Positions 411-48,398 of a DNA stretch of 64,000 nucleotides are shown here, in pieces. The notes under the pieces are model-generated. The model was not told the DNA's origin, ran no database searches, and saw nothing but the letters and a program-made list of their open reading frames with translations. This DNA comes from Blastocatellia bacterium (GTDB taxonomy: Bacteria; Acidobacteriota; Blastocatellia; HR10; J050). The stretch covers positions 186,001 through 250,000 of the forward strand of contig JALSQX010000105.1 in the NCBI GenBank assembly GCA_026985075.1, written 5' to 3'. Every line of letters starts with the position of its first letter. Position 1 is the stretch's first letter. A program made the translations under genes and the position numbers.

Positions 411-1595
411 TCACCGCCCGGAGAGGAGGAGCTTGGCGATGGTTTGAAGCTGCATGTTCGACGTGCCTTCGTAAATCTTACCGATCTTGGCGTCACGATA
501 ATATTTTTCCACCGGGTAGTCTTTGGTGTAGCCGTATCCGCCATAGATCTCGATCGCCTGTGAGGTCACCCGTTCGGCCACTTGGGAGGCGAAGTATTTG
601 GCCATCGCTGCCTCTTTGACGAAGTGCTGGCCAGCATCCTTGAGTCGAGCCGCATTGTAGGTCATCAATCGGGCCGCCTCAATGTCGGTGGCCATCTCGG
701 CCAGTTGGAATTGAACGGCCTGAAATTCGGCGATTGGTCGTCCGAACTGTTGACGCTCTTGTGAATAGGCGAGGGCGTGCTCGAAGGCGCCCTGAGCAAC
801 GCCGACCATCTGAGCCGCGATGCCGATCCGGCCTTCGTTGAGCGTCTCGATGGCCACTCGGTATCCTTTCCCCACCTCGCCCAAGACATTCTCCTTGGGA
901 ACTCGACAGTCCTCAAGAATGAGCTCGCAGGTACTGGAGGCGCGAATCCCCAGCTTGTCTTCTTTTTTCCCCACGGCGAATCCGGGAAACGCCCGCTCGA
1001 CGAGAAAGGCCGTGATCCCTTTATATCCTCGAGCGGGATCGATCGTCGCGAAGACGATGAAGATACCCGCCTCGGCGCCATTGGTCGTCCAGAGCTTGCG
1101 GCCATTGAGCACATAATAATCACCCTCGTCGCGAGCTCGGGTTTTCAGGGCGAACGCATCACTGCCCGACTCCGGTTCGGAGAGGGCATAGGCTCCTACC
1201 GTATCGGTAGCCAATCGGGAGAGATATTTTTGCTTCTGTTGTTCATTGGCCCAGCGCTCGATGGCGTTACTGACCAGTGTATTTTGCACATCAACGACCA
1301 CGCCCGCCGAGGCATCCACGCGGGAGAGTTCTTCGACGGCGAGGCAGGCCATGAAAAAACTACTGCCCGCCCCTCCATATTCCGCCGGAATATTAATGCC
1401 CATGAGTCCGAGTTGGAAGAACTGGGCGATGAGACCCTTGTCGAACACACCTTCCCGATCCATCTTCTCAACGAGGGGGCGAACCTGACCCTCGGCGAAC
1501 TGTCGCACGGTCTGGCGGAACAACAGCTCATCTTCGGAGAGTCTGGTCAGAGGAGATCCAGAAGCGAAATCCGAACCGGCACTGTGTTGCGTCAT
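411..1595 (-). CDS. Acyl-CoA dehydrogenase (short/medium-chain type)
   Basis: FAD enzyme that oxidises acyl-CoA to trans-2-enoyl-CoA and passes electrons to electron-transfer flavoprotein. At 394 residues it has the usual family length. The N-terminal helical domain is followed by the flavin motif YALSEPESGSDA, then LWTTNG, and the C-terminal helical domain holds IYGGYGYTKDYPVEKYYRD and YEGTSNMQ. The Glu in that last motif is the expected catalytic base of butyryl/medium-chain enzymes. I chose the ATG at 1595 because AGGAGG lies six bases upstream; an in-frame ATG 45 bases earlier lacks a Shine-Dalgarno sequence. Substrate chain length cannot be read from the sequence. No etfAB or thiolase gene is adjacent, so the pathway (fatty acid or amino acid breakdown) stays open. 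Confidence 0.93.
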   Translation of the reverse strand: MTQHSAGSDFASGSPLTRLSEDELLFRQTVRQFAEGQVRPLVEKMDREGVFDKGLIAQFFQLGLMGINIPAEYGGAGSSFFMACLAVEELSRVDASAGVVVDVQNTLVSNAIERWANEQQKQKYLSRLATDTVGAYALSEPESGSDAFALKTRARDEGDYYVLNGRKLWTTNGAEAGIFIVFATIDPARGYKGITAFLVERAFPGFAVGKKEDKLGIRASSTCELILEDCRVPKENVLGEVGKGYRVAIETLNEGRIGIAAQMVGVAQGAFEHALAYSQERQQFGRPIAEFQAVQFQLAEMATDIEAARLMTYNAARLKDAGQHFVKEAAMAKYFASQVAERVTSQAIEIYGGYGYTKDYPVEKYYRDAKIGKIYEGTSNMQLQTIAKLLLSGR

Positions 1596-1788
1596 AGCGT
1601 TCCTCCTGGCAATGATGATTGGGTGAACATAGTAGCACAAAACCGAGGAGACCGCCTAGCAAAGGCCGTCAGCGCGTGGCTGGAAGGCCCCGCCTCTCCG
1701 GGTGGATGGGTGAGGAGGCCTCTGAAATGAGATTCAGGGATTCCGCCTCTGAGGTGGGCCGATGCGTCGGCGGCGCGCGATAGAGAGG

Positions 1789-1818
1789 TTGTCGCTGAGC
1801 GTCAGAGTGTGCTATAGT
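1789..1818 (+). promoter_or_regulatory. Sigma-70-like promoter before sucD
   Basis: TTGTCG (1789-1794), an 18-base spacer, then TATAGT (1813-1818). The predicted start near 1825 would give a leader of about 35 bases before the TTG codon of sucD. The match is good at both boxes, but this is pattern evidence only. Confidence 0.5.
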
Positions 1819-1860
1819 CCCTGCCCTTAGAGCGCATCATGTTGAGGAGAGGATGGGACA

Positions 1861-2730
1861 TTGAGCATCTTGGTTGACCAGAACACGCGGCTTCTCGTGC
1901 AGGGTATCACCGGTCGGGAAGGAACATTTCATACCCAACAGATGAAGGCTTACGGGACGAACGTGGTGGCCGGCGTCACGCCGGGTCGCGGCGGTCTCAC
2001 TCACGAAGGCGTTCCCGTGTTCAATACGGTCGCTGAGGCTGTTCGCCAGACGGGAGCGAATGCCAGCGTGATTTACGTCCCCGCGGCCTTCGCCGCCGAT
2101 GCTATCATGGAAGCGGCCGATGCCGGGATTCCCCTGGTGGTGTGTATCACCGAGGGTATCCCGGTGTTGGATATGGTTCGGGTGATGGCCTTCCTGAAAG
2201 ATCGTTCGACCCGACTCATCGGTCCCAACTGTCCGGGCGTCATCTCTCCAGGAAAATGCAAGGTAGGCATCATGCCCGGCCAGATCCATCGGGAAGGAGG
2301 CGTCGGCGTCGTCTCTCGCAGCGGCACGTTAACCTACGAAGCGGTCTGGCAAATCACGGAGATGGGATTGGGCCAGTCGACCTGCATCGGGATCGGCGGC
2401 GACCCCATCGTGGGCACGAACTTCGTTGACGCGCTGAAGTTGTTCGAGCAAGACGATCAGACGGAAGCCGTGGTCATCATCGGTGAAATTGGGGGGACCG
2501 CTGAAGAAGAGGCGGCCCGGTTCGTCAAGGAGCATATGTCGAAGCCGGTCATCGGCTTCGTCGCCGGCCGGACGGCCCCGCCAGGTCGACGAATGGGGCA
2601 TGCGGGCGCCATCATCTCTGGGGGACGGGGCACGGCGGCAGAGAAATTCGCAGCCATGCGCGAAGCCGGTATCCACGTGGTGGAGAGTCCGGCCGAGATC
2701 GGTAAGACGGTGGCCGCGGTCCTGAAGTGA
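1861..2730 (+). CDS. sucD: Succinyl-CoA synthetase, alpha subunit
   Basis: Alpha subunit of the TCA-cycle enzyme that converts succinyl-CoA to succinate with NTP formation; it carries the CoA site and the phosphorylated histidine. The 289-residue length is normal. The CoA-binding region has [15 protein letters not shown] and GVTPGRGG, and the phospho-histidine loop reads [11 protein letters not shown] near residue 245. The start is a TTG codon preceded by a GA-rich ribosome site. Unusually, the beta-subunit gene sucC is not directly upstream: that space is a ~265-base gap holding only a promoter-like sequence. sucC must lie elsewhere. ndk follows after 99 bases, an order often seen after sucCD, and NDK can recycle the nucleotide product. 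Confidence 0.95.
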
Positions 2731-2829
2731 GCTTCGACATGTGGTTCTGGAAGAGCGCCGCACTCCCGGGGATATCTCGTCGCTGCGGAATAGAGGACGC
2801 TGGCTACTGAGACGTTGGGGAGAGAGAAG

Positions 2830-3249
2830 ATGGTGGAGCAAACGTTAGGAATCATCAAACCGGATGCCGTCGCTGCCGGTCATATCGGTGACATCATCGC
2901 CCGCATTGAGGCGGAGCGATTCACCATCCGAGCGATGAAGATGGTTCACCTGACCAAATCACAGGCCGAGGGATTCTATCACGTCCATCGGGAGAAACCG
3001 TTCTTCGAGAGCCTGACCACGTTCATGTCCAGTGGGCCGTGTGTGGTGCTGTTGTTGGAGCGCGAATCGGCCATCTCGCATTGGCGCGAGGTGATGGGGG
3101 CGACCGATCCGGCCCAGGCCGCCGAAGGGACGATTCGGCGCGCGCTCGGTTCGTCCATCGAGCGAAACGCCGTTCATGGTTCGGATGCGCCCGAGACGGC
3201 CGCCTTTGAGATCGGATATTTCTTCAATGCCCTGGAGAGGGCGGGGTGA
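2830..3249 (+). CDS. ndk: Nucleoside diphosphate kinase
   Basis: Transfers gamma-phosphate from NTPs to NDPs through a phospho-histidine. The 139-residue protein has the opening LGIIKPDAV with the conserved lysine at residue 10 and the active-site segment RNAVHGSDA with His116. I chose ATG 2830 (GGGGAGAGAG just upstream); an in-frame TTG at 2815 would add five residues. It follows sucD and is followed four bases later by a small membrane-protein gene, so the three are probably co-transcribed. Confidence 0.96.
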
Positions 3250-3253
3250 AAAG

Positions 3254-3496
3254 ATGGATGTCGGTCTCACTGCTCTCGGGAAAACGCTCATCCTCATGGG
3301 CGTCGTCCTGATCATCATCGGCGGCGTGATTTGGCTCGCCGGCCGTTTCCCGCATCTTGGGTTGGGGCGATTGCCCGGCGATATTCTCATCAAGCGAGAT
3401 AACTTCACGTTTTACTTTCCCCTTGGTACGAGCATTCTGATCAGCGTTGTCATCACCCTCATCTGGTTCATCGTCTCCTGGGTGACCCGTCGGTGA
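3254..3496 (+). CDS. DUF2905 small membrane protein
   Basis: An 80-residue protein with two hydrophobic segments (about residues 9-30 and 55-76) separated by LGRLPGDILIKRDNFTFYFP. That hallmark stretch of a short polar loop plus GDI and NFTFYFP identifies the DUF2905 family, which is widespread in bacteria and has no known function. The start ATG is preceded by GGGGTGA and lies four bases after the ndk stop, indicating translational linkage. The family is predicted to sit in the inner membrane; nothing in the sequence suggests an enzymatic activity. Confidence 0.85.
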   Translation: MDVGLTALGKTLILMGVVLIIIGGVIWLAGRFPHLGLGRLPGDILIKRDNFTFYFPLGTSILISVVITLIWFIVSWVTRR

Positions 3497-3897
3497 GCGC
3501 AGAGACATTTGATTGGCGGCCAAAAGGGCGTTGTGCTCTCATTGATTCCTTGGTCCAGAGTAGACCTCGAGAATTTCGGGGGACTCGCATCGATGGCGTT
3601 CCCACGCGCTCGTGTCCTTGCCCGGTAGTCGTAGAGGAGGCCAAAGACAGACAGGAAGGGCACAACCGGTAGTCGGCTCCGTGCCTTGACGCCTCATCGC
3701 CGGTCAGAATGGGGAGCGTGTCCTTGACCATTTCGGCGTGTTTCTCGGGCCTGCGGGGAGGGGCCAACACACCGTCACTGGAGGCACGTTCATTTCGCCA
3801 TCAATCCGGCGATGAGGGGGAGACGGACTTTGCCATCTCCCCGACATCATGTTCTCTCTCGGACGTGGTCCGCCGAACGCCGCCGATGTCCTGGAGC
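3497..3897. other. Intergenic region between convergent genes
   Basis: About 400 bases between the DUF2905 gene and the 3' end of the minus-strand receptor gene. Open frames here have no recognisable protein features and no ribosome site. I see no RNA gene and no strong terminator hairpin. Confidence 0.5.
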
Positions 3898-6800
3898 CTA
3901 GAACGAAACCTTCAGACCAAACTGCATATCTCGGTTTCGACGAGCGCTGAGTGGTTGCCCGAAGTCGTTTCGGGGGATGAGGAAGAAGCGTCGGTTCCTC
4001 GTTCCGCCTGTACGCCGCGAATCGAACATACTCCGATTGACGAACGAGAACTGAGGATGATTGGCGACATTGAATACCTGATAGATGAATTCCACGAACT
4101 TTTTCTCTCCCCATCGGATGCGCTTGCGCAAACTGAGATCGATCTGATTCTGCCCAGGACCACGGAAGGTATTGCGCCCGAAGAAGGGAATGCGATCGAA
4201 GATGACATTGTCTTCATTGAAATCCGTCGCCGAGGCTCCTCCCCCGGCCTCCGCCGAGAATGGGCGCCCGGTAGCGAACCGGGCGATGCCACTCAGACTC
4301 CATCCGCCCAACCCGTGACGCAAGAACCCATTTTTGGCGTTCTTGAAGAAAGGCATTCGCCAAACCCCGCTGATCACCAGGCGATGTGTGCGGTCCAGAT
4401 CGGACAATCCGCGATCCAATCGACTGTTGAACGGATCGAGGAGATTGGAGAATCCGCCGAGTGAGTTCCGATCGGAGATCAACCCGATGTCATCGATGCT
4501 CTTAGAAAGCGTGTACGACGCCAGCAGAGCGAATCCATGCGAGAAACGATGATTCACTCGCAGAGCGAGCCCATGATAGACAGAGTTGGCCACGCTCTCC
4601 AGCATGAGAATCTGGCGGAAATTGGGATTGGGACGAAGGGAGACGGTGGTGACGCCGATACGGGGGATGGTCATCGATTGCACGATGCTGCGTCCATCCT
4701 CGCTCAGTATCAACAGCGTCGCCGTTCCCGTGGGGGGAATGATGTTCACGTTGCGCACGCGGGAGATATGGGTGCCTTTGGTGAATAAATAGGCGATGGA
4801 AACCGTGGTATTCGGGAGCACTTCTCGTTCGATTTCCAAATTGGCTTTTTGGAAGTAGGGATTGACGCGATCGGGCGCAAAGATGCGCAGATCGGCGAAG
4901 GGATCGGAGGGATCAAACCCTCCCGGGGGCTCCTCCAGTCGAGGAAACTCAATGTTGGGCAGATTGAACGGTCCGGCGGCCAGCACCTCATCGATGGGAA
5001 AGGTGATGCCGAACTGCGGAGCGGCATCGGCGCTGAGGAAGACGTTGAACGAATACACGTTGTTATTGGTGAGCACATCGTTGACCAGGAGGTTCGGGGT
5101 TCGACCGTAAAAAATCCCATAGCCACCGCGAATGACCGTCTTGCCATCCTCCGTCGCCGTGATGGCGAATCCGAAGCGCGGGCCGAAGTTGTTGGTATCC
5201 TCATTGATGATGCCCGTTCGCGGCTCTAGCGGATTCACCACCAAAGGGTCGGGGAGCGTTTGCCGATCATAGCGTAATCCATAATAGAGCGTGAATCGAG
5301 GGTTCACTCGAAACGTATCTTGTCCATAAAAGCCGTAATCGACCGAGACTTGTTTCACCAGCGGCGTCAATCCCGGACCGAAGAATCGCTGTTGATAACT
5401 GCTGAAATTGCCTTGGAGAAAATCGGCGATGCTGGAGAAACTGAACCGCCCACTGACCTGCAAGGCGAAGAAGTTGGCGTCCTGCACGCGGTTGATATCC
5501 AGGCCCACTTTAAACGTATGCCGACCTTTGATGATGGAAAGTCCGTCGATCCACTGTTGCCGCCGCTCCTCGGTGAAGCGACCGGGGAACTCGCCGGGCC
5601 GCGATTGGAGGAAATTGCGCGATCCCAGCGCGAAACCGCGGATGCGAATATCGGGCATGAACGGGGCATTACCGAAATCGCCGGTATAATCGAAGACAAA
5701 ATTGAACCGAAATTCGTTGATGACGCTGGGGGACAAGACGGAATTCAGCGTGATCACCGAGGTGTAGCTGTTGGTGAAATTCTTGGCGTTCGCAAAAACC
5801 GAATCGTCCGTCGTCGGTCGGGTGAACACCCCATTCCGGGAATCGAACTGCTGGAAGTTATGCGTCACCGTCAACGTATGATTCTGATTGATGACCCAGT
5901 CGATCCGGGGGAAGAAAGTGATCTGATCGAAATCTCGGGGGAGCGATCCAGTCAACGGGAAGAAGAACGATTGGGCTTGCGAGCGAAGTGGCTCCGGCAA
6001 GGTGACAATCTCATTTTCCAGTTCCGGACCGAGGATGACGCCAACCGGTTCATCGCGTATTTGCTGGTCATAGTTGAGGAAGAAAAACAACCGATCCCGA
6101 ATCAACGGACCGCCAATGTTGCCGCCGAATTGTTGACGTCGTTCGTCGGGCCGTGGGATCGGTGGGATGGAAGATTTGTTGATGACGTTGTTGGCATTAA
6201 AGGCATCGTCACGGATGTAATAGAACCCGCTCCCATGCCACTCGTTCGTCCCCGAACGGGTGATGGCATTGACGATCCCGCCAGTGGCCCGGCCGTATTC
6301 AGCGGCGAAGGTATTGTGCGCTACGCGGAATTCCTTCACCGTCTCCTGGGAGAACTGAAATGGCGCCCGGGTGCGTCCGCGGATCTCGCCGAAGAAACTA
6401 TTGTTGTTGTCGGCTCCGTCAACCTGAATATTGTTCGAGACGCGGTCGGCCCCACCGAATGAGACGTTCCCGAAATCGTCAGCATCGGTCACCCCTGGCG
6501 TGAGCAGGACGAGTTCGGTCCAATTTCGCCCATTCAGGGGAAGATTGTCGATCAGCGTGCGATCGATCACCGTTCCCGGTTGCGTGCGCGTCGGTTCGAT
6601 TAACGGGACTTCTTCTCCAGCTACAACCACCGCCTCTTCTCTGATGCTGGCCGGTGAGAGGTGAGCATCGAGCGTGAGCATATCGCCGACCTGGAGGATG
6701 ACGTGCTCGAACTTCATTTCGGCGAATCCTTGAGCGCTCACCGTGATCGTGTATTCGCCCGTCGGCAAGAGGGGGAGGACATAGTAACCGCGCTGATTCG

Positions 6801-43602: not shown

Positions 43603-44178
43603 ATGTCACTACACGATGTGGAACTGAGTCTGGAGAAGGCGCTTCGAGAAGCACTGGCGACGCGACGCGCCATTCATGCACGCATTGCTGAAGCCGAGGA
43701 AGAGCTTCGCTCGCTCCGTCAGCGGGCCGCCGAGCTCGATGCCATCATCGAGCATACGCAGGCGGCGCTCGGTCGGACTCCGGTTGCTGAGCGTGTGCCC
43801 GGGTTGCCCGAACCGAGTGCATCTTCGACGACCGCTGAACCGGCGTCTACCGAGAGCGTTCCATCGACCCATCCCCCTGTGCGCTATGAGAAACCTCCAC
43901 TGCGATCGAACATCAAGCCAACGAGCCTGAGGTTTCGCGATCTGACGGCCACCCAGGCGGCCACCATCGTGTTGCGGGAAGCCGGAGGTCCCCTTCACGT
44001 GAACGCCATCTATAACAAGCTGTTGGAGAATGGCTTCGAATTCCACGGCGACCACCCCACCATTTCTTTAGCCGTCACGCTCAACCGCTCGAAGCGATTC
44101 CGGAAAGTGGCGCCGGCCACATTCGATCTCGTCATCCGTGATGTTCCCGAGCAGCGGATGTCGAGTTCCGGTCCCTGA
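43603..44178 (+). CDS. Coiled-coil protein with HARE-type winged-helix domain
   Basis: 191 residues. The N-terminus (1-~60) is a coiled coil (RIAEAEEELRSLRQRAAEL), the middle (~62-105) is a disordered Ser/Thr/Pro/Glu-rich linker, and the C-terminal ~75 residues form a winged-helix domain. That domain reads TATQAATIVLREAGGPLHVN, then AIYNKLLENGFEFHGDHPTI, then a strand ending RFRKVAPATFDLV. This pattern fits the HARE-HTH superfamily (HB1, ASXL, RNA polymerase delta subunit and restriction enzymes), used to bind DNA or RNA polymerase. The gene follows spoVR after 70 bases and may be the last of the operon. I infer a DNA-binding or polymerase-associated regulator. Confidence 0.65.
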   Translation: MSLHDVELSLEKALREALATRRAIHARIAEAEEELRSLRQRAAELDAIIEHTQAALGRTPVAERVPGLPEPSASSTTAEPASTESVPSTHPPVRYEKPPLRSNIKPTSLRFRDLTATQAATIVLREAGGPLHVNAIYNKLLENGFEFHGDHPTISLAVTLNRSKRFRKVAPATFDLVIRDVPEQRMSSSGP

Positions 44179-45477: not shown

Positions 45478-45601
45478 AAGGGGAACTCCAGGGCAAGAAT
45501 GTAACCCTCAAACTATCAATCACATCGGGGAGGCCCCCCGGGGCCATCGCCGGATTCTCTGCACTGACGGGGCCTTTTGACTCAGATTTGGGTGATTTTT
45601 C

Positions 45602-45664
45602 GAGAAAATTTTCAGGAGGATGAATCGTTTTTCGTCAAAAATACGTCTATTAGTAATGAAGGCA
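45602..45664 (+). promoter_or_regulatory. ECF-like promoter element, copy 1
   Basis: An AT-rich element GAGAAAATTTTC, then GAAT (45622-45625), an 18-base spacer ending TCAAAAATA, then CGTCTAT (from 45644). GAA(T/C) and CGTC with this spacing resemble an ECF sigma -35/-10 pair. A second copy occurs at 47261-47325 with the same internal spacing. It is 12 bases upstream of an ATG (45676) that opens a ~49-codon frame of uncertain coding value. Confidence 0.5.
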
Positions 45665-46044
45665 CAGCATGCAACACACTTCGAATCGGGCATTGACGAC
45701 ACCTCTGAACCTCCCTGGGTGGCGCGCTCCGGAGACCTCGCCCGCACATCGAGTCACCTACGTAAACAACCACCTCGAACCCGGGCCGCGCCACCCAGTT
45801 CCCCCCGGGGCCGGGGATGAGTGACGTGACTGCTGGACTTCCACACAACGCCGACCGATATGGAAATGCCACCCAGGGGCGACATCTTCCCGGAGATTCG
45901 CAATTTTTCCGATGTAATTTGTTGAAATTCATTGAGTTGGTGATGGGGGGGACAGGTGCGTGGCGTGCCTTGACTGCATATGATAAAGGCTGTGATGTGA
46001 TGTTGGAGTCATGTCAAGCTTTTGGCAAAGGGAGGAGTGGCTAT

Positions 46045-47121
46045 GTGGAACCTGAGGCATCTCATCTCACCTCACCTATGATGTGGATTTTGTTCTCTCT
46101 GGTATTGGTCTTAGTGCTCGGCCTTGGGCCGGTGCAGTCGCAAACGTCAAACATGTTTGAGCGAATTAAGCAAGTCCAAAAGCGGCATGAAGACGCGCTG
46201 TTTGAAATTTCAGGCGTCAATGCTGTGGGTATCGGGAAGGAAGGTCAGGAGTACGTGTTGCATGTATATGTGAACGAAGAGGTCAATCCCACACCCGGGC
46301 GGGATGTACCAGATCAGCTCGAAGGTGTACGCGTGGTGGTCATCAAGGAGAAAGGCGAGTTTTGGGCGTTGACAGCTTTACCTCTCGATAATGGACCGGA
46401 ACATCGACAAACCTTTCCACCTCCGGTACCCATGGGCGTATCGACGAGCAACGATCTTCTTTGCGCGGCTGGCACGCTGGGCTTCCGGGCGCAAGACCCC
46501 AACACTGGACAAGTCGGTTACATCACCAACAATCATGTGGCTGTCGCCGGTAGTGGGTTGGGATGTCCGAACAGCGCTCCCATAGGAACGGATCAGCTCC
46601 AGGCTGGAGTACTGGACTCCGGGTGTAATACCCCGGCAACGGACATTGGTGATCTGGATCGATTTATTCCCATCCAGTTTGGGCTGTTCAGCAGCAATCT
46701 GGTTGATGCCGCATTTGTGGCCAGCAGTACAGGGCTGATCTCCAACAGTATTCTCGATATCGGTCCGCCTGTAGGTACAGCCCGAGATCCGGTCCTGGCA
46801 GAATTCGTGCAAAAGAGCGGGCGAACAACCAGCCTTACAACAGGGCAGGTCAGAAGCGTTAATGCAACAGTAAGGATCAACTACGGCATTATTCCTGGTC
46901 TATGTGGTTCGGCTCGATTTCTCGGTCAGGTGGCAATTGTGGACGTCTTCGGCCCTTTTGGGCGAGGAGGCGATTCTGGATCACCCGTGCTGAGTCTGAG
47001 TGGAGAGCCGGTGGGGCTTCTCTTTGGGGGGAGGGTTTTTCGGTGCGCACGGTTCAGAAGGACTTGGCGGTGTTTCGGCGGGAGGGTTTGGTCGAGGGGC
47101 AGGGCGAGGCGTTGCGGGTGA
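46045..47121 (+). pseudogene. Secreted trypsin-like serine protease, 3' end lost
   Basis: A frame with a signal peptide (MMWILFSLVLVLVLGLGPVQSQ) and a chymotrypsin-like fold. His is in YITNNHVAVAG, the catalytic Ser in GRGGDSGSPVLSL, and an Asp-containing strand lies between (DLDRFIPI). The N-terminal ~60 mature residues resemble the helper domain of Nal1-like bacterial peptidases. After VGLLFGG, near 47030, the sequence changes to an Arg/Cys-rich tail that no longer looks like a protease: the last strand and C-terminal helix of the fold are missing, and the DNA switches to an HTH fragment in another frame. The GTG start at 46045 has GGAGGAG seven bases upstream; ATG 46078 is an alternative. 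Activity of the product is doubtful. Confidence 0.65.
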
Positions 47122-47165
47122 AAGAACCAACTGGCCTGCGCCACTACCTCGAATCGATCGAGTAA
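47040..47165 (+). pseudogene. Fragment of a helix-turn-helix protein
   Basis: A ~41-residue in-frame end reading SVRTVQKDLAVFRREGLVEG then a tail to TAA at 47163-47165. The VRTVQKDL-EGLV pattern is a DeoR-like winged-helix recognition region. Nothing upstream in this frame belongs to it, so it is the remains of a gene joined to the truncated protease at about 47030-47040. Its codon use is G/T-rich, like the patch inside the sigma-54 activator gene. Confidence 0.45.
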
Positions 47166-47260
47166 ACTGTCTGCAGGACCTTACATTGGAGTCATCCCCG
47201 CGCTTCCTGGATCTCCACTTCGATCCGATAACGAGAGGCTCGATCCCGGAAGATTGACAG

Positions 47261-47325
47261 GGAGAAAAATTTTCTCCGCACGAATAATTTTCCCTCAAAA
47301 ATGCGTCTATATATAAGTGGAGGTG
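47261..47325 (+). promoter_or_regulatory. ECF-like promoter element, copy 2
   Basis: A second copy of the 45602-45664 element, with GAGAAAAATTTTC, GAAT (47282-47285), an 18-base spacer ending TCAAAAATG and CGTCTAT (from 47304). An ATG at 47328 follows GTGGAGG and opens a ~72-codon Pro/Ser-rich frame that I do not call as a gene. Roughly 70% of positions match between the copies by eye. Confidence 0.5.
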
Positions 47326-47758
47326 CAATGAGGCGGGAACCAACCAATCGTTCAATCGACCTCCTTAGTCCCGCCAGCCTGAGTGGCATGGCCCTGGGCC
47401 TACCCCCAAACAGCCCGAGGATCTCGCCGACACCTCACCGGGCCATGCCACTATGCACATTCTCAACACTGGATTCCTCCTCTTCGGACCGTAGGTCACA
47501 CAACTTCCCTGGTCAATCTGCCCTCAATGCTGTGCTTGTCGGATGAGGATCTTTTCACCGCGCTGTTTCCAGCAGAGTCGGGTGTCACCTGTGGAACTCG
47601 CGCCAATCGTCGGTGATCAGAATGAAGGTAGTCCATTGCGGAGAGACATTGGCCTCGCATCCAGGAGAGCATAAGAGCGATCTCCTGGAGGAGAATGAGC
47701 AGCTCATCGAAGAATCGCCCAGATGAGTGCATGAGAGTGAATCGAGGAGGTGATGCCC

Positions 47759-48398
47759 ATGACGGCACTCTCATGAAAAGCACTGCTGTGTCCTCAATGT
47801 CACTTGGTGTTCTCCACTCGGATCGTCTCCTCTTATAGGCATGGGGGGAAGATACGGACTTCTGCCTACATTTCCGAGGAGAGAATCCGTTGCCCTACTT
47901 CCTTCACCGATGCCCTAAGTGTCATTTTGCCGCTTATGACGAGGAGTTCGATGAGCCGTCTGAGACCATGTCCGAGGAGGATCTCCCCCCGGGACCCTCA
48001 GGACTCAGGGATAAAGCGCTATTCGGATGCTGCCGCTCATTATGCTACGTGGCGTGAGCAGGCCTTACGGATTGCTGACACTTTCATGAGAGCCGTTTGG
48101 TGCGCGCGCCGGGAACGACGCGTAGATGAGGAACGAGCCCTGCTCCGCGAGGCGACGCGGTGGTTCACCAAGGCGCTGGATGGACGAACCGTTGAATCCG
48201 ACCAGCGAGCGACAGTGATATACCTCGCCGGAGAAGTGTATCGCCGCTGCGGGGAGTTCGCCGGAGCAGAGAGCCTCTTCGAGCAAGCGCGAACCGATGG
48301 ATGATGAAACACGCAGGGGGTCGCCTCAGTACATCGAGCGCCAGTTAGCCCTCGCCCGAGCTCGAGATGCGAGGAATACGGTGTTTGAGGAGGGATGA
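47759..48398 (+). pseudogene. Broken DUF2225 gene
   Basis: Pieces in three frames together make a DUF2225 protein of about 213 residues. The ATG at 47759 has GAGGAGG upstream, but the frame meets TGA at 47774. The frame then continues LLCPQCHLVFSTRIVSSYRH. A shift at a GGGGGGAA run (~47845) gives DTDFCLHFRGENPLPYF then HRCPKCHFAAYDEEF. A second shift near ~47990-48010 restores the first frame: HYATWREQALRIADTFMRAV, then a helical part ending AGEVYRRCGEFAGAESLFEQ. A third shift near 48290-48320 gives QYIERQLALARARDA to the stop at 48398. The paired CPxC motifs are the zinc site of the family. Decay or sequence error are both possible; three shifts and a stop favour decay. Confidence 0.7.

What the first reader, a model, noticed from the sequence alone, without database searches (positions are those of the whole stretch)
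45602..47325. Duplicated ECF-like promoter element flanking a decayed protease gene
Two ~65-base elements (45602-45664 and 47261-47325) share the order GAGAAAA-TTTTC, GAAT, an 18-base spacer ending TCAAAAAT, CGTCTAT. GAA(T/C) plus CGTC at this spacing resembles an ECF sigma promoter. They lie 1.6 kb apart in direct orientation around the truncated protease. They could be two promoters of one regulon or arms of a past duplication; each precedes a short ATG frame.
Basis: partly seen in the sequence, partly recalled or inferred. Interest (0 to 1): 0.5.

Follow-up and report, generated by a model that had tools for sequence, protein, structure and literature searches.

The report
ECF sigma promoters driving small RNAs
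The two repeated DNA elements look like on-switches used by one stress-type sigma factor across this bacterium's genome, and one of them appears to drive a small structured RNA rather than a protein.

Summary
The two elements (E1 45602-45650, E2 47262-47310) are 2 of 10 copies in the host genome. Related copies occur in a same-genus genome (5) and a same-family genome (8); elsewhere only weak, scattered hits were seen. Seven host copies stand in front of intact-looking protein genes, an eighth before a decayed frame. One sits at the junction of an ECF sigma gene and its zf-HC2/TPR anti-sigma gene, with a TPR-CHAT gene next; the order recurs in the other genus. Motif: A/T tract, about 6-9 bases, (T/C)GAA(T/G), 18 or 19 bases, CGTC.

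The short ATG frames are not genes: E2's ATG is interrupted in the sister genome. Behind E2 lies an RNA-like unit of about 140 bases, conserved as an island from promoter to the end of a long hairpin, and found in the other genus with a different gene downstream. Behind E1 lies another long hairpin, then the truncated protease gene.

Best reading: an ECF regulon with at least one small-RNA arm. RNA function and the sigma assignment are inferred; nothing was measured.

The parts
45602..45650 (+). E1: predicted ECF promoter (A/T tract 45602-45613, -35-like GAAT 45622-45625, 18-base spacer, -10-like CGTCTAT 45644-45650)
   Evidence: one of 10 host copies, R1 E=1.1e-15 (a training member); orthologous copy in G001
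45651..45798 (+). E1 transcript leader or small RNA (start inferred from the promoter, end from the hairpin)
   Evidence: long hairpin predicted in both species; 2 compensatory pairs of 14 between G000 and G001
45715..45732 (+). E1 hairpin P2, 5' arm (pairs with 45781-45798)
   Evidence: inverted repeat I1, 89% complementary
45781..45798 (+). E1 hairpin P2, 3' arm
   Evidence: I1
46078..47033 (+). Truncated protease gene, the first gene that an E1 transcript would reach; about the last 23 codons of the G001 orthologue are missing; start codon chosen by me
   Evidence: 91% identical to G001; Nal1_C match below cut-off here, just above it in G001; breakpoint; signal-peptide-like start read by eye
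47034..47165 (+). Remnant of a Crp-type regulator gene (HTH tail) fused behind the protease by a deletion
   Evidence: HTH_Crp_2 weak match; 243-aa gene with cNMP_binding and HTH_Crp_2 in G001
47262..47310 (+). E2: predicted ECF promoter (A/T tract 47262-47274, GAAT 47282-47285, 18-base spacer, CGTCTAT 47304-47310)
   Evidence: orthologous copy in G001
47314..47453 (+). E2 small structured RNA (start inferred from promoter, end from where conservation stops)
   Evidence: isolated conserved island 47281-47452, 84% to G001, flanks without match; homologue in G002; no Rfam match
47332..47375 (+). E2 hairpin P1 (47332-47338 with 47369-47375)
   Evidence: invariant between G000 and G001; not aligned in the G002 RNA
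47382..47452 (+). E2 hairpin P2 (47382-47394 with 47440-47452)
   Evidence: I10, 100% complementary; 10 core pairs chosen by me are kept in 3 of 3 species, 2 with changes on both sides
47423..47432 (+). Conserved CTCGCCGACA in the P2 loop, possible contact site
   Evidence: identical in E2 of G000, E2 of G001 and the G002 RNA

Best explanation
The two elements are promoters of one ECF sigma regulon. The likely sigma factor is the 246-aa ECF protein on contig C83, held by a zf-HC2/TPR anti-sigma factor with a membrane segment and encoded beside a TPR-CHAT protease that may help to release it. When active, it transcribes the anti-sigma/CHAT operon, outer-membrane and secreted-type proteins, sensor kinases and other genes, and at this locus two hairpin-containing transcripts. 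E2 drives a free-standing small RNA of about 140 bases that most likely acts in trans on mRNAs through its conserved, predicted-unpaired CTCGCCGACA loop. E1 drives a transcript that begins with another long hairpin and can run into the protease gene. Shown by computation: the repeated promoter, its positions, the conserved RNA-like island and the kept pairs. Inferred: which sigma factor reads it, that transcripts exist, the role of the CHAT protein, and what the RNAs do.
For: Promoter set: blastn with E1 in the host gave 22 matches, of which five further ones are promoter copies (C66 3e-7, C83 2e-6, C4 3e-4, C80 0.0036, C94 only 1.99) and cover query 6-67 only; it did not list E2. Model R1 from these 7 sites found 3 more in the host, 5 in G001 (E 6e-15 to 8e-3) and 5 in G002 at E<=0.007 (two more at 0.024 and 0.12). 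R3 from 22 sites added one in G002, E=2.7e-7, before Exo_endo_phos_3 and thermolysin-type genes. CGTC is invariant in 22 of 22 sites, spacer 18 in 13 and 19 in 9. Recurring targets: Oar-like outer-membrane protein in G000 and G002 and, by its start, G001; Reg_prop/Y_Y_Y kinases, two in G000, the C49 counterpart in G001 by its start. Sigma link: G000 C83 (element overlaps the end of the sigma ORF) and G002 C113 (element between), anti-sigma then CHAT next. The sigma protein matches G001 (69%, 359 bits) and G002 (38%, 186 bits) best, next 35-37% and at most 117 bits; no match in G003-G009 of the order, where no convincing site was found. RNA: E2 island; interrupted ATG; different downstream genes in 3 species. 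The G002 RNA matches E2 in sequence (0 of 300 shuffles) and E2 of G001 (2 of 300), is the best R2 match in its locus (E=2.2e-4), folds with z=-3.71 and lies 440 bases behind the counterpart (66% identity) of window gene 43603-44178. Fold z-scores: E2 G000 -2.77, E1 G001 -2.42.
Against: No transcript data. G001's sigma gene has no element and no anti-sigma gene directly behind it, although 5 promoter copies remain there. With 2-3 sequences the covariation does not beat the pair-shuffling control (115 of 500 and 123 of 500 shuffles reach it), and the pairs counted were helices I chose. In the cmsearch alignment of the G002 RNA, P1 is not aligned and three pairs are non-standard; the whole-genome R2 search did not list it. 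E1 in G000 folds little better than shuffles (z=-0.88); E2 in G001 has z=-1.21 and its minimum-energy fold breaks part of P2. No terminator-like site follows either RNA. The -35-like GAAT/GAAG differs from E. coli RpoE's GGAACTT (passage of PMC8103513). E1 and E2 RNAs are not alike in sequence. R1 also gave weak hits (E<=0.5) in 59 of the 95 genomes outside the family and R3 in 9 of 17; I treat these as noise. The trans-acting role is untested: exact complements of the loop give 26, 24 and 29 matches in three genomes against 17, 16 and 23 control matches, no target list.
Confidence: 0.7

Rival explanations
1. The promoters belong to one regulon, but a different sigma factor reads them (another ECF factor of this genome), and the copy beside the C83 sigma gene only makes that operon one more target.
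For: A G002 copy precedes a second sigma gene (L155; Sigma70_r2) with no meaningful similarity to the C83 protein, and the C66 copy precedes a frame that looks like a decayed sigma gene by eye, so sigma genes may themselves be targets. G001's C83-type sigma gene has no element. I did not count the ECF genes of the host.
Against: Position at the sigma/anti-sigma junction in two genera; presence of the C83-type sigma and of convincing sites coincide over the 10 genomes of the order.
Confidence: 0.2
2. The hairpins are 5' leaders that control translation or termination of downstream genes (protease behind E1), not independent small RNAs.
For: E1 lies about 0.43 kb before the protease start on the same strand, and the stretch is kept in G001, without a terminator-like site here.
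Against: For E2 the downstream genes differ in all three species and in G001 the next ORF is convergent, while promoter plus RNA is what is conserved.
Confidence: 0.2
3. The elements are a repeat left by a mobile element or a duplication around the protease.
For: Direct orientation around a decayed gene.
Against: Ten copies on nine contigs in front of unrelated genes; the blastn matches to other copies do not reach beyond the promoter part; orthologous positions kept in G001.
Confidence: 0.03
4. The short frames after each element encode small peptides.
For: GGAGG/GAAGG stretches lie before both ATGs.
Against: E2's ATG is interrupted in G001; E1's frame shifts by one base; no Pfam match for the two frames tried.
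Confidence: 0.05

Closest known systems
E. coli sigma-E (RpoE) regulon with its small-RNA arm MicA, RybB, MicL; F. nucleatum sigma-E small RNAs such as FoxJ
   Same: An ECF factor drives both envelope protein genes and small RNAs (PMC8103513, passages seen; PMC11005410, title and start of abstract in the listings).
   Different: Different -35 sequence, an RNA without an Rfam match, and a TPR-CHAT gene in the sigma operon; probably another phylum (recalled, not tested).
CASP-sigma / Csx30 / Csx29 module of type III-E CRISPR systems (PMC10028731, passages seen)
   Same: ECF sigma, an inhibitor and a TPR-CHAT protein encoded together; the sigma protein scores on NCBIfam NF041236 (CAS_III-E_sigma) at E=2.2e-6; CASP-sigma has motif matches in the cas1 promoter, and in G002 a copy of our promoter precedes a type I-C cas3-cas5c-cas8c operon.
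   Different: 27.8 bits against a cut-off of 100; the inhibitor is a zf-HC2/TPR protein; the cas operon behind the element was seen in G002 only.
ECF sigma / zf-HC2 anti-sigma operons in general (recalled)
   Same: Sigma gene followed by zf-HC2 anti-sigma gene with a promoter of the regulon.
   Different: The promoter lies at the junction of the two genes, and the anti-sigma protein shares membrane segment and TPR part with the CHAT protein (38% over 214 positions).

Membership tests
ECF sigma regulon | Two-part promoter with constant spacing repeated in front of several genes | tested here: met
   22 aligned sites, CGTC invariant, spacer 18 (13 sites) or 19 (9 sites); 10 sites in the host
ECF sigma regulon | Sigma protein matches ECF sigma models | tested here: met
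   TIGR02937 sigma70-ECF 52.0 bits, cut-off 42.9; Pfam Sigma70_ECF 21.7, cut-off 21.1
ECF sigma regulon | Anti-sigma gene and a promoter of the regulon in the sigma locus | tested here: met
   G000 C83 and G002 C113; not met directly behind the G001 sigma gene
ECF sigma regulon | Transcription of the sites depends on the sigma factor | not testable with these tools
   needs expression data
sigma-E-type small RNA arm | Conserved RNA-like unit without conserved start codon behind a promoter of the regulon | tested here: met
   E2 island in G000/G001 and homologue in G002; transcript itself not seen
sigma-E-type small RNA arm | Hfq in the genome | tested here: met
   PF17209, best of 3 matches 90.6 bits, C1:71930-72106; binding not tested
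sigma-E-type small RNA arm | Rho-independent terminator at the RNA end | tested here: not met
   no terminator-like site at 45798 or 47453 in the simple scan
sigma-E-type small RNA arm | Base pairing with envelope mRNAs | tested here: inconclusive
   loop-complement search not discriminating
CASP (type III-E) sigma module | Sigma protein above the NF041236 cut-off | tested here: not met
   27.8 bits, cut-off 100
CASP (type III-E) sigma module | TPR-CHAT protein beside sigma and inhibitor | tested here: met
   CHAT E=3.9e-68; HLATHF and LSACQSG, taken as the His and Cys motifs from recall, present by eye
CASP (type III-E) sigma module | Cas7-11 and Csx30 genes in the locus | not tested
   no model was run for them

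The most novel reading that the evidence does not exclude
A chromosomal ECF circuit in which a membrane TPR-CHAT protease, of the general kind used by type III-E CRISPR, cuts the anti-sigma factor with which it shares its TPR part; the freed sigma factor then fires envelope genes, a new family of small RNAs and, in a sister genus, a type I-C CRISPR-Cas operon. The CRISPR protease-sigma module would then be a specialised offshoot of a wider housekeeping stress circuit.
Probability: 0.22. Interest if true: 0.75.

Novelty: new variant of a known kind. Interest (0 to 1): 0.52.

Why it matters
It gives a concrete, testable regulon (sigma factor, inhibitor, promoter motif, about 10 targets) for an unnamed lineage, and it places a conserved structured RNA that Rfam does not know under that promoter. 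If true, the protein-plus-small-RNA layout of the sigma-E response is not confined to the groups where it has been described. The sigma/anti-sigma/TPR-CHAT operon is a natural place to test whether CHAT proteases control sigma factors outside CRISPR.

Tried and rejected
Pattern scans outside the lineage: TCAAAAATNCGTCTAT gave 79 viral stretches and the GAAT-N13 version 5 genome stretches. I looked at 24 bases before and 60 after each; 2 of 79 viral ones have GAA at the right place, many are one repeated sequence, and I treated all 84 as chance. Exact matches in 58 relatives: G000 and G055 only; the G055 one lies on the opposite strand inside a long ORF.

Anti-Shine-Dalgarno idea: E2's P1 loop holds ACCUCCUUA, the 16S tail (recalled), and CCUCC is kept in G001, but the G002 RNA reads GACCTACT, so it was dropped as the core mechanism.

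E1 and E2 as paralogous RNAs: R2 scored E1 at 11.3 bits, E=0.039 in 29 kb, less than the antisense strand there (13.4), and 109 of 300 shuffles reach the E1-E2 score; not claimed. C66's leader: 7 of 300 shuffles reach its score with E2 of G001, 142 of 300 with E2 of G000; not claimed.

Weak model hits: those in G004 and G005 lie at the start of a coding frame (MGKKYVYFF) and are taken as chance. G035 C42 (E=0.0015) looks promoter-like by eye and is left open; G035 has 11 hits at E<=0.2. In the host an 11th R3 hit (E=0.197) and in G002 a ninth (E=0.113) were dropped.

Solved structures: the CHAT protein matched 53 sequences at E<=0.001, all with their best stretch in the TPR part; the sigma protein's best was E=0.16. 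Kinship with Csx29 or CASP-sigma structures is not shown. PADLOC gave nothing for sigma and anti-sigma and one weak TPR model for the CHAT protein. Rfam on the G002 RNA gave one match, mir-722 at E=0.35, taken as chance. E2 has no match in the plasmid collection.

Literature: listings only, apart from passages of two papers. Acidobacteria + ECF sigma factor + small RNA + promoter: 0 papers. ECF sigma factor + CHAT domain + anti-sigma + tetratricopeptide: 1. CHAT domain, zf-HC2, sigma factor, any 2: 4. TPR-CHAT, sigma factor, Csx30, anti-sigma factor, any 3: 4. Acidobacteria, ECF sigma, promoter motif, regulon, any 3: 73, of which 15 were listed. I saw no report of this system in these listings; that is all that is claimed.

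Full report
What was checked. The two elements are real. They are 73% identical over 49 ungapped bases, and GAAT-N16..20-CGTCTAT is far above the shuffled expectation in the window (3 against 0.16), although one of the three matches (40288) is inside an ORF. The window is contig C105 of a 5.2-Mb, 98.7% complete genome, G000.

The regulon. A blastn search with 45595-45830 in the own genome gave 22 matches. One is E1 itself; five are promoter copies, on C66, C83, C4, C80 and C94 (E 3e-7 to 0.0036, C94 only 1.99), each matching only the promoter part (query 6-67). The remaining 16 are short and were dropped; E2 was not listed. A sequence-only model (R1) of these seven sites, run on 98 genomes, found three more in the host (C100, C40, C49), five in the same-genus genome G001, and a set in the same-family genome G002. 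In the same search 62 of 98 genomes had some match at E<=0.5; outside the family the best was 0.003. A laxer search gave the same 10 host sites and nothing else up to E=2. R3, built from 22 sites, again gave 10 host sites, 5 in G001 and 8 in G002, besides one dropped hit each in G000 (0.197) and G002 (0.113). In the other 17 of 20 genomes the best hit was E=9.6e-4, inside a coding start. Sites used to build a model match it by construction: the independent finds are those of R1 outside its 7 members and the G002 C133 site of R3.

What stands behind the sites. Host: C83, zf-HC2/TPR anti-sigma then TPR-CHAT; C80, LTD/TIG protein; C4, two DUF488 genes and a RecQ-like helicase; C94, Oar-like outer-membrane protein; C100, an AAA+ regulator that looks like the sigma-54 type (named by eye, no model run); C40 and C49, Reg_prop/Y_Y_Y sensor kinases; C66, a decayed frame that looks sigma-like by eye (no Pfam match); and E1 and E2. 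G001: counterparts of C80, C94 and C49 by their sequence starts, plus E1 and E2. G002: the anti-sigma/CHAT operon, an Oar-like protein, a second sigma gene, a Trans_reg_C/TPR protein, Exo_endo_phos_3 with a thermolysin-type gene, a cas3-cas5c-cas8c operon, a kinase-like start cut by the contig end (named by eye), and an RNA. By a rough ORF model of the window, 5.3% of random placements fall in front of an ORF of at least 150 aa on the same strand. Seven of 10 host sites do, 1.3e-7 by binomial. C66's frame is shorter and was not counted. The null also asked for no overlap with another ORF; I did not apply this to the sites, and mechanical opposite-strand ORFs overlap C80 and C4.

The sigma factor. 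On G000 C83 the element overlaps the last codons of an ECF sigma ORF and precedes a zf-HC2/TPR anti-sigma gene and a TPR-CHAT gene; on G002 C113 it lies between the sigma and anti-sigma genes, CHAT next. Relatives of the sigma protein occur in 15 of 39 genomes. The best are G001 (69%, 359 bits) and G002 (38%, 186 bits); the next have 35-37% but at most 117 bits; none is found in the other seven genomes of the order. That fits the spread of the promoter. Against it, the G001 sigma gene lacks the element, and the next ORF behind it runs the other way. The sigma/anti-sigma/CHAT order is also found in G013. In G035 a TPR protein but no CHAT gene follows directly. In G022 one 1,204-aa protein with TPRs and CHAT stands behind the sigma gene; its N-terminus looks like a zf-HC2 domain by eye but Pfam did not call it. 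In G000 the anti-sigma and CHAT proteins share 38% identity over 214 positions, including the membrane segment and TPRs.

The RNAs. In G001 both elements lie at the same place, 3.6 kb apart. The window and G001 align at 88% up to 47033, then only at 47034-47155 and 47281-47452 until 48556. The second block is E2's promoter plus about 140 bases that end with the 3' arm of hairpin P2. E2's ATG is interrupted in G001. In G002 the site on C108 stands 440 bases behind the counterpart (66%) of window gene 43603-44178, so it is syntenic with this locus. The RNA behind it aligns with E2 (score 26, shuffled maximum 17, 0 of 300; 2 of 300 for E2 of G001), shares CTCGCCGACA, and folds with z=-3.71. A P2 core of 10 pairs, chosen by me, is kept in all 3 species, with U-A, U-G and C-G at one pair and C-G to G-C at another. 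In the full E2 model the G002 RNA leaves P1 unaligned and has three non-standard pairs. A P2 helix of 14 pairs in E1 is kept between two species with two double changes. With so few sequences the pair-shuffling control is not beaten; the slid controls are. Fold z-scores are mixed: E2 -2.77 and -1.21, E1 -0.88 and -2.42 in G000 and G001. A genome search with R2 found strong matches only in G000 and G001 among 39 genomes; the G002 RNA appeared only in the unfiltered local search. Rfam has no match in the window.

The decayed protease. Relative to G001, 1,248 bases are missing, removing about 23 codons of the protease and most of a Crp-type regulator gene. Both elements outlived the deletion.

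Comparison. An ECF regulon that includes small RNAs is a known principle (sigma-E with MicA, RybB, MicL: PMC8103513, passages). The operon recalls the CASP-sigma/Csx30/Csx29 module, where the CHAT protease cuts the sigma inhibitor and the sigma motif occurs in the cas1 promoter (PMC10028731, passages). Membership in that family is not claimed: the sigma score is far below the family cut-off. The cas operon in G002 is one observation in one genome.

Taxonomy. From recall only, one relative with a 2.68-Mb contig (G024) resembles Chloracidobacterium, which would place the window in Acidobacteriota, class Blastocatellia; this was not tested.

Noticed in passing
window 47033/47034: Deletion of 1,248 bases relative to the sister genome G001 fuses the protease gene to the tail of a Crp-type regulator gene.
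   Followed up: yes
window 47804-48304: DUF2225/TPR-type ORF behind E2; the corresponding stretch of G001 has no aligned sequence.
   Followed up: partly
L205 (G002 C95) 433-5000: A copy of the promoter stands before a type I-C cas3-cas5c-cas8c operon in the sister genus.
   Followed up: partly
L201 (G022 C6) 2899-6513 minus: One protein behind an ECF sigma gene carries TPRs and a CHAT domain and, by eye, a zf-HC2-like N-terminus: a possible anti-sigma/protease fusion.
   Followed up: partly
L155 (G002 C31) 3658-4368 minus: A copy of the promoter precedes a second sigma-70 region 2 gene with no meaningful similarity to the C83 sigma factor, hinting at a sigma cascade.
   Followed up: partly
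L236 (G035 C42) 1980-2034: Promoter-like site (E=0.0015) with A/T tract and AACGTCTATTAG in a distant family that has a 37% sigma relative; may be a diverged regulon.
   Followed up: no
L143 (G000 C66) 3695-4142: Promoter copy followed by a decayed, sigma-like frame whose leader has a G+C-rich inverted repeat, both seen by eye.
   Followed up: partly
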